Assembly: GCA_002790315.1 (NCBI GenBank)
Contig: PFUW01000035.1
Location: forward strand, 3,045 to 9,183
Length of the DNA stretch: 6,139 nt
Source of the DNA: Huberarchaeum crystalense [NCBI: Candidatus Huberarchaeum crystalense]
Lineage (GTDB): Archaea > Huberarchaeota > Huberarchaeia > Huberarchaeales
Direction: 5' to 3'
The first letter of the stretch is position 1. Every line of letters starts with the position of its first letter. Below, piece by piece: positions 1,698-6,139 of the stretch. The notes beneath the pieces were generated by a model, which saw only the letters and a list, made by a program, of their open reading frames with translations, was not told the DNA's origin and ran no database searches. The position numbers and the translations under genes were made by a program.

Positions 1698-1712
1698 GTT
1701 CTGAAAGTGCGG

Positions 1713-1758
1713 TTTGATAAATTAGAGAATATAAATATAAATGAGATTTGATAAATTA
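1713..1758. repeat. 12-base direct repeat in the convergent intergenic gap
   Basis: TTTGATAAATTA occurs exactly at 1713-1724 and again at 1747-1758, an offset of 34 bases, almost the same as the 33-base offset of the neighbouring repeat. The 107-base gap between the two convergent stop codons (1665-1771) holds no gene. It has only short T runs and no clear hairpin terminator on either strand. Confidence 0.5.
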
Positions 1759-1771
1759 AAAGACTCAAAGA

Positions 1772-3943
1772 TTATGCGTGAATTGGCGGCAATCCTTTTT
1801 TTACTCTAACTTTTGCAATAACTTTTTGCGACAAATCTTGCCTTAATTTGCTGTAATATGTGTCGCGCAAATTGAAAAATCCATGTCCGCTTGTTGTTGA
1901 TTTTAATACAGCTTCAAAACCAAATGACTCGCTAATAGGCAAATCAGCATAAATAATCGCTTGCTCCCCAACAACATCTATATTTTCAATTGTTCCGCGC
2001 AAACCATTAAGCAACTTAGTTATATCTCCAACATATGTTTCTCTTGTGTCAATTCTGATCTTCATAATTGGCTCGTAAATGCAAGGTTTTGCATCCATAA
2101 TCGCTCCACCTATTCCTTCTTTAACAGCAGGATAAACTTGTGCTGGTCCACGATGTATCGCATCTTCGTGAAGTTTTACATCAACTATTTGAACCTCAAC
2201 CCCCATCATTTTATCTCCTAATTGAGGTCCATTATTTACAGTCATTACAAAACCTTGTTTTATTAACTCAATAATTTCTTCCATTTGCACAATTCCACGC
2301 GTTAAATCAAAAAGTATACATTCATTATGAATGTAGCGCGCTCTTTTTGAGGTGTCTGAATCATAACCAAGAGTGTGCAGTTTTTCAAAAATAAAGACAT
2401 CTTTTTTTCTTATGTTGCCAGGGGGAATATCTTTTTTGACAAGTGTTTGATAAACAGCGTCAGGCAAAGGTCTTACTGAAAAGAACAAATCATTATGCTT
2501 GTTTGGTGTTCTTGCTTGAAAGGGTTGTCTGCTACTGCTTTCAACTGACTCGCGATATACAACCAATGGCTCGCTTGTTTTAACTTCTATTCCTCTTTCT
2601 TTTATTCGGGTTTGCAAAATATCTAAATGAAGCTCTCCAAGACCATAAACCAAATGCTGACCTGTTTCGCGATTTAATTCTACTTTATAAGTCGGGTCGT
2701 CTCGCACTTCTTGTGCAATTGCCTCAATTAAATTAGGTAATTCTTGCGGATTTTTTGCTTCAAATGCTTTAACAACAACTGGCTCAAAAAGATATGTGAT
2801 GTTTTCAAATTCCTCTATTGGCTCTAAAGAAATTGTTTCACCAACTAAAATATCCTTAAGTCCTGATAAAGAGAATACACTACCTGCGCGCACTTCATCA
2901 ACACTGACGCGTTTATCAATAAACTGCACTGCTATTTGTTGAATTTTTGCCTTTTGCTTTTGTTTGTTAAGATATACTTCCATGCCTTCTTTAAGTGTTC
3001 CTGAGAAAACGCGTCCATATGCAAAATTTCCATATTTTGTTGAAGAAACCGAAGTAATAGCTGCCATTAAAGGACCCGAAGAATCAGCAGTAAGCATTGC
3101 TTGACCCCAGGTAGAAGCTAAATCCCCTCTTTTCCAAATCAAAGGGATTCTTATTTTTTGCGCATCTTTTGGAAAAGGCAAATTTTCAACAACAGAATCA
3201 AAAACAACAACAGCCAAAGGCATTTTTTTGCTTAACTCCTCTTGTTTGCCTTGCTGCACTAAATCAATAATTTGCTTAAAACTAATTCCTGTTTTTTTCA
3301 TCCATTTCATTGATATTCCCCACTTTTGCTTTGCTGAACCAAACATAACTGTGTTATTTTGTAAACTTACGCGCCAATCAACATTGCTTGGTTGATATGC
3401 TGCTATAAAATTGTTAACACCATTTATGATTCCAATAAATCTTTCTTGCATTTGCTCAGATGTAATTTTAAGTTCATTGATTAGGCGATCCACTTTATTA
3501 ATATATAAAATTGGCTTAACACCAACAGAAAGAGCGGTTTTTAAGACAGTTTCGGTTTGGGGCATAATTCCATCAACAGCATCAACTAATACTATTGCAC
3601 CATCAATTGCGCGCATAGATCTTGTCACTGCACCACCAAAGTCAACATGACCGGGGGTGTCAATCAAATTAACAAGATAATCTTTACCCTCACTATTTAA
3701 AACCATTGTAATCGCAGAAGCCAAAATCGTAATCCCTCGTTGCTGCTCAACATCCCAAGCAGACATTGCACATTGTTCGCCTGCATATTTGTCAGAAATC
3801 ACTTTTCCTGCTGATAATAATGAGTCGCTGAATGTTGTTTTTCCGTGGTCAATGTGCGCTATTGTAGCAATGTTGCGAACGGTTGTGATGTCTTTAGATA
3901 AGTTCGCTACTGCATATTTAACAACTTCTTCAAGATTTGCCAT
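1772..3943 (-). CDS. fusA: Elongation factor 2 (aEF-2), GTP-dependent ribosomal translocase
   Basis: It catalyses translocation of tRNA and mRNA on the ribosome with GTP hydrolysis. The 723 residues match the usual archaeal length of about 725-735. GTPase motifs in order: AHIDHGKT (29-36), QQRGITI (67-73), DTPGHVDFGG (95-104), NKVD (149-152) and GSAK (202-205). Domain II runs from about 290 to 375. Domain III carries GLGELHLDIL (434-443). Domain IV contains LHEDAIHRGPAQ (591-602), whose second histidine, H597, is the position modified to diphthamide in archaea and eukaryotes. The C-terminal end (STTSGHG at 682-688, finishing KVRVKKGLPPIHA) is less conserved than the usual ATxGRA and ERKGLKP endings, and is short. 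The ATG at 3943 gives the family's normal N-terminal helix before VRNIATIAH. No Shine-Dalgarno site is visible; an A/T motif abuts the ATG. The stop is TAA. Confidence 0.98.
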   Translation of the reverse strand: MANLEEVVKYAVANLSKDITTVRNIATIAHIDHGKTTFSDSLLSAGKVISDKYAGEQCAMSAWDVEQQRGITILASAITMVLNSEGKDYLVNLIDTPGHVDFGGAVTRSMRAIDGAIVLVDAVDGIMPQTETVLKTALSVGVKPILYINKVDRLINELKITSEQMQERFIGIINGVNNFIAAYQPSNVDWRVSLQNNTVMFGSAKQKWGISMKWMKKTGISFKQIIDLVQQGKQEELSKKMPLAVVVFDSVVENLPFPKDAQKIRIPLIWKRGDLASTWGQAMLTADSSGPLMAAITSVSSTKYGNFAYGRVFSGTLKEGMEVYLNKQKQKAKIQQIAVQFIDKRVSVDEVRAGSVFSLSGLKDILVGETISLEPIEEFENITYLFEPVVVKAFEAKNPQELPNLIEAIAQEVRDDPTYKVELNRETGQHLVYGLGELHLDILQTRIKERGIEVKTSEPLVVYRESVESSSRQPFQARTPNKHNDLFFSVRPLPDAVYQTLVKKDIPPGNIRKKDVFIFEKLHTLGYDSDTSKRARYIHNECILFDLTRGIVQMEEIIELIKQGFVMTVNNGPQLGDKMMGVEVQIVDVKLHEDAIHRGPAQVYPAVKEGIGGAIMDAKPCIYEPIMKIRIDTRETYVGDITKLLNGLRGTIENIDVVGEQAIIYADLPISESFGFEAVLKSTTSGHGFFNLRDTYYSKLRQDLSQKVIAKVRVKKGLPPIHA

Positions 3944-3957
3944 AACTTTATTTATAA
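3944..3957 (-). promoter_or_regulatory. A/T leader motif directly before the EF-2 start codon
   Basis: Read on the minus strand, the bases before the ATG are TTATAAATAAAGTT. The same string, with one change, precedes radA, and a close variant precedes the rhomboid gene. It resembles an archaeal TATA box. However, it ends only about 7 bases before the ATG, and a TATA box would place the transcript start inside the coding region. Its role is therefore open. Confidence 0.4.
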
Positions 3958-3993
3958 TTTTTGGTAATAATCAGTATGTTTTTGGTTAGAGTA

Positions 3994-4094
3994 TTAGAGT
4001 GTTGGGTTTGCTTCTTTCATCAAGCCCAATAAATTCTTGCACAAAGTTGTTTTTCCAACACCACACACACACCATCAATTATTATATAGACCAT
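3994..4094 (-). pseudogene. Remnant of a P-loop kinase gene (thymidylate/deoxynucleoside kinase-like N-terminus), frameshifted and truncated
   Basis: On the minus strand an ATG at 4094, overlapping the last 13 bases of the rhomboid gene, opens MVYIIIDGVC. That frame then runs into a (GT)5 tract. Removing one GT unit continues it as GVGKTTLCKNLLGLMKEAN and PTL, then TAA at 3996-3994. The repaired peptide is a hydrophobic beta strand followed by a perfect Walker A motif, G-VCGV-GKT, with the DG before the loop that is typical of dTMP kinase-like enzymes. Only about 32 residues remain of a fold that needs about 200, so no active enzyme can be made. Unrepaired, the ATG frame drifts into unrelated residues and stops at TGA about 22 codons in. 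I infer a gene once third in a radA-rhomboid-kinase cluster, then lost by slippage plus deletion. The exact kinase family is uncertain. Confidence 0.55.
4063..4072. repeat. (AC)5/(GT)5 dinucleotide run at the frameshift site
   Basis: Five AC units on the plus strand (GT on the minus) lie exactly where the kinase-like frame is lost. One unit fewer restores the P-loop frame, which is the signature of replication slippage. Confidence 0.8.
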
Positions 4095-4729
4095 TCAATT
4101 TTGATTTCGCGCTTTGTCGCTTCATTCTCGTTCGCTTTTTTGATAAAATATCCGCAAATAAGACCTGCGAGAAAACCGCCGATGTGCGCGCTATTGGCAA
4201 TTGGAAGAAAGAATGATAAAAAATAAATTAAAATCAAATTAAAGAGCATCGCAACCCACAAAGGCATTGGAAAAGGAAATGGAAATACAACAACAGGAAC
4301 ATTTGGTCGCAAAATCATCAAAGCTCCAGATATTCCAAAAATCGCGCCAGAAGCACCCAGCGCAAAAATAATTTCATTGCTCATTGCAGTCTCAAGCAAA
4401 AAAGCAAGCCCTCCAACAAACCCTGTAATAAAAAAAACACTTAAAAACTTGCGCGTGCCTATAATGCTCTCAAGAAAAGTTCCCATGAACAACAGCGCCA
4501 ACATATTAAACATAATATGAGCAAAATTTGCATGAGAAAATATTGAAGTAAGGAGTGTATAAATTGCATTAGGATTACTCTGAATGTATTGCCAACTTCC
4601 AAGAGCAAAATGTTGATTTAAATAAAGCCCAAATAAAGAAAAAAACAATGAACTAACAAAAACAATAACACACACCACAGTCAAAAATATCGTTCCAATT
4701 GGAAAATGTGTGCGTCTGAAAAAAAGCAT
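4082..4729 (-). CDS. Rhomboid-family intramembrane serine protease
   Basis: A 215-residue polytopic membrane protein with the six-helix rhomboid core. Membrane segments are roughly 12-34, 70-89, 96-114, 120-140, 152-176 and 181-197. The catalytic serine is S127 in GASGAIFG (125-132), on helix 4. The catalytic histidine is H182 in SAHIGGFLAG, on helix 6. HANFAHIMFNM contains H71 and N75, matching the oxyanion-site His and Asn (H150/N154 in E. coli GlpG). The family cleaves transmembrane helices within the lipid bilayer; the substrate here is unknown. The usual L1 WR motif before the first histidine is replaced by IY. The basic, charged C-terminal tail (about 198-213) is probably cytoplasmic. 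The gene starts 32 bases after the radA stop on the same strand, so cotranscription is plausible. The ATG at 4729 gives a sensible N-terminus without a cleavable signal peptide. Confidence 0.93.
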   Translation of the reverse strand: MLFFRRTHFPIGTIFLTVVCVIVFVSSLFFSLFGLYLNQHFALGSWQYIQSNPNAIYTLLTSIFSHANFAHIMFNMLALLFMGTFLESIIGTRKFLSVFFITGFVGGLAFLLETAMSNEIIFALGASGAIFGISGALMILRPNVPVVVFPFPFPMPLWVAMLFNLILIYFLSFFLPIANSAHIGGFLAGLICGYFIKKANENEATKREIKIEWSI

Positions 4730-5932: not shown

Positions 5933-6058
5933 TCATATATACTTTATATACTCTAAAAGTTTTTTAATATTATCTTTATTATCTTTATATTTATCAATTT
6001 TTCACTCAACATAATCTCTTACCACATTACTTGTGTTCATAATGTACTTTTCATTTTG
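5933..6058 (-). pseudogene. Degenerate copy 1 of a short coding element, interrupted by TGA
   Basis: The minus-strand frame reads QNEKYIMNTSNVVRDYVE, then TGA at 6004-6002, then KIDKYKDNKDNIKKLLEYI and KYI to a second TGA at 5935-5933. The paralogous copy to the right has TGG (Trp) at the position of the first TGA. The frame is closed by TAG immediately upstream (6061-6059). I do not recognise the family. The segment after the TGA is a lysine-rich, helix-like stretch, which A/T-rich DNA can also produce by chance. It may be a broken duplicate of a gene end or of a small gene. Confidence 0.3.
5943..5950 (-). promoter_or_regulatory. Candidate TATA box for radA
   Basis: The minus strand reads TATATAAA here, close to the archaeal TATA consensus. 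A start site about 25 bases downstream would fall near 5920 and leave a leader of nearly 60 bases before ATG 5862, with the T7 tract inside it. In such A/T-rich sequence, chance matches are common. Confidence 0.28.
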
Positions 6059-6060
6059 CT
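5999..6060. repeat. 62-base direct repeat, copy 1
   Basis: It matches 6078-6139 at 56 of 62 positions with no gaps; mismatches are at 6002, 6016, 6019, 6023, 6029 and 6042. Similarity stops abruptly to the left of 5999. The repeat period is 79 bases and the unique spacer is 17 bases. Confidence 0.9.
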
Positions 6061-6068
6061 ATTAAGCT

Positions 6069-6139
6069 CTATGACTCTTTCCACTCAACATAATTTCCTA
6101 CAACATTGCTTGTGTTCATACTGTACTTTTCATTTTGCT
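6069..6139 (-). CDS. Short reading frame at the right edge, possibly the 3' end of a gene entering from outside
   Basis: On the minus strand the frame reads QNEKYSMNTSNVVGNYVEWK, then ES and TAG at 6071-6069. There is no stop between the window edge and this TAG in that frame. It is therefore either the C-terminus of a longer protein that begins beyond base 6139, or a tiny gene starting at the ATG at 6119. It lies in the right-hand copy of the 62-base repeat. I do not recognise the family. If it is a gene end, the left copy is a partial tandem duplication of it. Confidence 0.3.
   Translation of the reverse strand, partial: QNEKYSMNTSNVVGNYVEWKES
6078..6139. repeat. 62-base direct repeat, copy 2 (may continue past the window)
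   Basis: This copy runs to the last base of the window, so its right boundary, and any further copies, cannot be seen. Read on the minus strand, it keeps the TGG codon that is TGA in copy 1. Confidence 0.9.

What the first reader, a model, noticed from the sequence alone, without database searches (positions are those of the whole stretch)
3994..4094. Fossil P-loop kinase between the rhomboid and EF-2 genes, broken by one extra GT unit
Seen: on the minus strand ATG 4094 opens MVYIIIDGVC, and removing one unit from the (GT)5 run at 4063-4072 joins it to GVGKTTLCKNLLGLMKEAN. A hydrophobic strand running straight into a complete Walker A motif, with a start codon overlapping the upstream gene as in an operon, is unlikely by chance. 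Known: dTMP kinase and deoxynucleoside kinases start with a strand, D/E-G and a P-loop at this spacing. Inferred: a nucleotide kinase gene once sat here and was lost by slippage and then deletion, or the missing part moved elsewhere.
Basis: partly seen in the sequence, partly recalled or inferred. Interest (0 to 1): 0.6.

Follow-up and report, generated by a model that had tools for sequence, protein, structure and literature searches.

The report
Probable remnant of a lost gene
Between two intact genes of a tiny symbiotic archaeon lie about 100 bases that look like the broken first thirty codons of an ATP-binding enzyme, perhaps ordinary debris of a gene lost during genome shrinkage, although chance is a serious rival and the enzyme cannot be named.

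Summary
The window is from Ca. Huberarchaeum crystalense, a ~0.5 Mb DPANN archaeon. The joined 32-mer matches only generic P-loop models, all below cut-off.

It beats most chance tests: 0 of 3000 shuffles of the interval reach its score, and 1 of 500 shuffles of the reference genome's non-coding DNA does. A first profile gave 1 of 1000, and a hand-made matrix ranked it near the bottom of real P-loops.

A fossil N-terminus of a P-loop NTPase is the likeliest reading (0.5); chance follows (0.4). "Kinase" is not established. The reference assembly has a different, also broken, allele at this site (+2 bases). Even in frame the reading stops after 32 codons, so nothing here works as a kinase. No kinase was seen beside EF-2 or rhomboid in 29 + 29 distant loci, but no EF-2 locus shares the gene pair. 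The reference genome has no thymidylate kinase match; 97 of 101 genomes searched have one over cut-off. Low interest.

The parts
3994..4094 (-). putative fossil reading frame, ATG 4094 to the TAA at 3996-3994 that is in frame once the frame is shifted at the GT run: strand, Walker A and first helix of a P-loop NTPase
   Evidence: sequence; family scans below cut-off; shuffle tests
4063..4072 (-). (GT)5 run that breaks the frame; the window and the reference assembly differ by 2 bases here
4082..4729 (-). upstream gene: rhomboid family protein, 215 aa, intact
1772..3943 (-). downstream gene: translation elongation factor EF-2, 723 aa, intact
3944..3993 (-). rest of the spacer up to EF-2: no recognisable kinase continuation; A-rich signal directly before the EF-2 start

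Best explanation
The interval keeps the first ~30 codons of a P-loop NTPase gene (family not determinable; a small nucleotide or nucleoside kinase is plausible) that once lay between the rhomboid and EF-2 genes. Most of the gene was deleted and what is left drifts; the dinucleotide run in the old P-loop codons changes length. It does nothing now: in neither allele is a complete Walker A open in one frame, and no catalytic domain follows. Shown: the sequence, the two out-of-frame alleles, the excess over shuffles with one profile, the lack of a thymidylate kinase match in the reference genome. Inferred: that an intact gene once stood here, and the order of deletion and slippage.
For: With a profile that excludes it, the repair has 15.0 bits, and 0 of 3000 shuffles of the interval reach that. 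Among non-coding intervals of the reference genome this one is the top hit (14.9 bits, next unrelated interval 9.9; 13.6 against 9.5), and 1 of 500 whole-genome non-coding shuffles reaches 15.0. The only difference between the two assemblies within the interval is at the GT run. In a search of 101 genomes the reference is one of two without a PF02223 match, and it has 2 AAA_18 matches against 3-13 in the other 60 genomes. That fits loss of nucleotide kinases; PMC6792436 (passages read) predicts no de novo nucleotide synthesis.
Against: Family matches are below curated cut-offs. The first profile was weaker (1 of 1000 shuffles); in the genome scan with it the reference allele was not listed at 8 bits or more, while four readings inside genes that I take for chance scored 12.3-14.6. 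With the second profile two such readings scored 12.2 and 10.6. A hand-made matrix put the repair near the bottom of real P-loops. Start context is poor. The 138-base gap is ordinary: 45% of 227 same-strand gaps are 130 or longer. No kinase is seen at this place in relatives. A reader who looks for any famous motif in many windows will sometimes meet a P-loop.
Confidence: 0.5

Rival explanations
1. Chance. An AT-rich spacer with a GT run that gives a P-loop-like peptide once one indel is allowed.
For: Scores below family cut-offs; first profile only 1 of 1000; hand-made matrix poor; chance readings inside genes score as high with the first profile; poor start context; ordinary spacer length; the strong reading in the reference allele lacks the strand.
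Against: 0 of 3000 shuffles of the interval and 1 of 500 whole-genome non-coding shuffles with the second profile.
Confidence: 0.4
2. The stretch is a functional non-coding leader of the EF-2 gene (promoter or RNA element) and the peptide likeness is incidental.
For: It lies directly upstream of EF-2 and ends in the A-rich pre-start signal common in this genome.
Against: No Rfam family in the window at gathering score; folding is ordinary for its composition (z -0.61; 48 of 200 shuffles fold as well).
Confidence: 0.06
3. An assembly or sequencing error in the GT run breaks a real short gene.
For: The two assemblies disagree exactly there, and repeat runs are error-prone.
Against: Both assemblies are out of frame, and even in frame the product ends after 32 residues, far short of a kinase domain (PF02223 has 185 positions).
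Confidence: 0.03

Closest known systems
Gene remnants in reduced genomes of symbionts (general kind; from knowledge, no call)
   Same: short broken N-terminal piece between intact genes, in a ~0.5 Mb genome predicted to lack nucleotide synthesis
   Different: too short to name the gene; no intact copy found here
Thymidylate kinase (PF02223, TIGR00041)
   Same: strand, acidic residue-G and P-loop spacing; best NCBIfam match (19.7 bits); the reference genome has no match to the family
   Different: far below the cut-offs (83.25 and 27 bits); nothing beyond the first helix; the D/E-G-x-D/E-G-A/S pattern by which I picked thymidylate kinases reads D-G-V-C-G-V here
AAA_18 domain (PF13238)
   Same: best Pfam match, 22.7 bits over 18 profile positions
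   Different: below the 29.4-bit cut-off; 18 of 128 positions

Membership tests
Thymidylate kinase (PF02223/TIGR00041) | whole-protein score over the curated cut-off | tested here: not met
   13.8 of 27 bits and 19.7 of 83.25 bits, on the repaired 32-mer
Thymidylate kinase (PF02223/TIGR00041) | catalytic domain beyond the P-loop (nucleotide-binding and lid motifs, recalled) | tested here: not met
   in-frame stop after 32 codons; scans of the reading carried past that stop up to EF-2 add nothing to kinase models; no detached remainder in the reference genome (best E 0.5)
Deoxynucleoside kinase (PF01712) | whole-protein score over the curated cut-off | tested here: not met
   14.7 of 27 bits; the reference genome has two sub-cut-off matches, 14.2 and 13.9 bits
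P-loop NTPase (any) | [AG]x4GK[ST] after a hydrophobic strand | tested here: inconclusive
   met only after one GT unit is left out; not met in the raw frames of the window, nor in the reference allele, whose raw frame has C in place of the first residue (sequence)
Gene remnant at a conserved position | intact homologue at the same place in a relative | tested here: inconclusive
   no kinase-like neighbour in 29 EF-2 and 29 rhomboid loci, but a rhomboid in 0 of the 29 EF-2 loci and a single genome held for the phylum

The most novel reading that the evidence does not exclude
The fragment is what is left of the thymidylate kinase gene of the Huberarchaeota lineage, lost recently enough that its P-loop is still legible, so that the switch to a host supply of thymidine nucleotides could be dated within the genus.
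Probability: 0.07. Interest if true: 0.4.

Novelty: new member of a known kind. Interest (0 to 1): 0.15.

Why it matters
If it is a true remnant, it marks a recent step of genome reduction in a DPANN symbiont and hints at which host supply made a nucleotide-binding enzyme dispensable. As it stands it is a small, ordinary example of possible gene decay that cannot be tied to one enzyme.

Tried and rejected
Longer relic. After the TAA the same frame is open for 13 more codons to a stop just before EF-2, and its D-Y-Y recalled uridine kinases to me (from memory). Scans of the 46-mer with X at the stop hardly change the kinase scores (AAA_18 22.7 to 23.2, dTMP kinase 19.7 to 19.4) and raise ABC_tran from 16.8 to 20.2 bits; the best PDB match becomes an ABC-F protein at E 0.027. 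Dropped.

PDB search of the 32-mer: the top four hits (E about 1e-7) are designed pentatricopeptide repeats; the alignments printed for the first three show a sum of 3-bit repeats, an artefact. The next is an adenylate kinase at E 0.015.

Origin by copying from another P-loop gene. A short-word search of the reference genome (output cut at 3000 characters) shows 11 identical bases at the EF-2 P-loop and 16 identical bases (E 0.014) inside the P-loop of an AAA ATPase gene about 2.7 kb away on the same contig (gene). The likeness does not reach beyond the motif codons, so I take it for shared codon use, but I did not test it further.

Detached remainder of the kinase: the 32-mer finds only its own locus in the reference genome at E up to 10, and a thymidylate kinase profile from 20 sequences nothing significant. 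RNA element: none. Thymidylate synthase: PF02511 has no match, PF00303 one sub-cut-off match of 13.8 bits. The reference is a draft of 74 contigs, so an absence may be a gap.

Scoring history. A hand-made matrix was unfavourable and I dropped it because it had no substitution prior. The first profile HMM and the second (made after the first) are both reported. The second profile's 49 pieces were picked by motif from loci fetched for PF13238 and PF02223.

Papers: one search listed 20 of 32 papers, one search listed 5; of these I read only passages of PMC6792436. A paper recalled by DOI is not held. DPANN + pseudogene + thymidylate kinase gave 0 papers. One search listed two papers on start signals; neither was opened.

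Full report
What the window is. EF-2 of the window matches a contig of Ca. Huberarchaeum crystalense at 100% over residues 1-723 (PFSX01000046.1). The window and that contig differ at four places in 6.1 kb: 2 bases more in the contig at the GT run (window 4063), a substitution at 2693, 34 bases more in the contig near 1759, and a substitution at 78. The organism has a genome of about 0.5 Mb, varies in abundance together with Altiarchaeum, and is predicted unable to make nucleotides de novo (PMC6792436, passages read). No whole genome is held for the window, so the reference genome G001 (74 contigs, 499,820 bases, 28% G+C) stands in for it.

The observation. In the raw sequence the frame from ATG 4094 stops after 24 codons; that 24-mer and the 36-mer of the reference allele match no Pfam family even at E 10 (the window's other raw frame of 30 aa was not scanned). 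With one GT left out, the 32-residue reading has a strand, a complete Walker A and a helix start. Pfam gives 29 families at E up to 10, the best AAA_18 at 22.7 bits (cut-off 29.4), most of the others P-loop families; NCBIfam gives 47, the best dTMP kinase at 19.7 bits (cut-off 83.25) (25 of each shown). So the reading is P-loop-like, and no family shown is reached.

Is it more than chance? I compared the interval with dinucleotide shuffles, allowing in each case every single skip of one or two bases. A second profile (49 pieces: AAA_18 kinases and thymidylate kinases of other genomes) gave 15.0 bits for the repair, and no other variant scored higher; 0 of 3000 shuffles reached it (maximum 10.8). 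An earlier hand-made matrix was unfavourable: 10.4 bits, above 1 of 37 real pieces. In G001, with the second profile, this interval is the best non-coding one (13.6 bits; 14.9, where the next unrelated interval has 9.9). But that hit is a different reading: the reference allele opens the second half of the P-loop and the helix in one frame, without the strand and the first glycine. Of 500 shuffles of all 326 non-coding intervals, 1 reached 15.0. With the first profile the genome scan did not list the interval at 8 bits or more, and four readings inside genes that I take for chance scored 12.3-14.6.

The two alleles. The reference contig has two more bases at the GT run and is also out of frame for the full reading. 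So the site varies between close assemblies, and neither opens a complete Walker A in one frame. This fits neutral decay, or an unreliable assembly at a repeat. It does not fit a gene under selection.

Context. ATG 4094 lies 13 bases before the end of the rhomboid gene. Its upstream context scores -2.17, against a leave-one-out mean of 3.6 for 231 starts; 31% of 5475 internal ATGs do as well, and 15% of true starts score lower. In the same list 22 starts overlap their upstream neighbour, so overlap as such is common. The spacer of 138 bases is ordinary (45% of 227 same-strand gaps are 130 or longer; gene calls are my own ORFs of 80 aa or more).

Relatives. Of 197 genomes searched (G001 included), all have an EF-2 match; the 29 best loci besides G001's were fetched with up to 1.5 kb on each side, fewer where a contig ends (L010 has about 140 bases upstream). 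A rhomboid was found by tblastn in 0 of the 29. Among ORFs of 80 aa or more with [AG]x4GK[ST], the neighbours are EF-1-alpha-like GTPases, a helicase-like, an ATPase-like and two SMC-like frames, all on the downstream side, and two short frames that look spurious, one of them upstream (labels are my reading of motifs). In 29 rhomboid loci (of 130 genomes with a match) 7 hold such a motif: two EF-1-alpha-like, one ABC-like, one ORC/AAA-like, one in the rhomboid frame itself and two short frames; none looks like a nucleotide kinase.

Gene content. G001 has no PF02223 match; of the 101 genomes in that search 99 have a match at E up to 0.01 and 97 one over the cut-off. It has two AAA_18 matches, the fewest of 61 genomes (3-13 in the rest), two sub-cut-off dNK matches, no ThyX match and one sub-cut-off ThyA match. 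A lineage that has shed nucleotide kinases is a likely place for the remains of one. That is circumstantial, and the genome is a draft.

Verdict. A possible, slightly better than even, nameless fossil of a P-loop NTPase N-terminus, non-functional, of a kind expected in a shrinking symbiont genome; chance remains a serious rival.

Noticed in passing
upstream of starts genome-wide in G001; in the window before EF-2 (3943), rhomboid (4729) and radA (5862): A strong A-rich block at -9 to -5 (A 0.76-0.82 at -9, -8, -7 and -5; 0.61 at -6) and T at -1 in 75% of 230 genes, with TATAAA most often starting at -12 (25 of 104 occurrences in 382 upstream pieces). Of 22 starts that overlap their upstream neighbour, 9 show GGAG instead (counted in the list). 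This looks like an unusual start signal for an archaeon and deserves a look of its own.
   Followed up: partly
window 1705-1758: Two partial copies of a unit with 34-base spacing in the spacer between the convergent plus-strand gene (ends 1664) and EF-2; the reference contig is 34 bases longer here, as if by one more unit.
   Followed up: no
window 5999-6060 and 6078-6139: Two 62-base direct repeats, 90% identical, with starts 79 bases apart, at the end of the window, upstream of radA.
   Followed up: no
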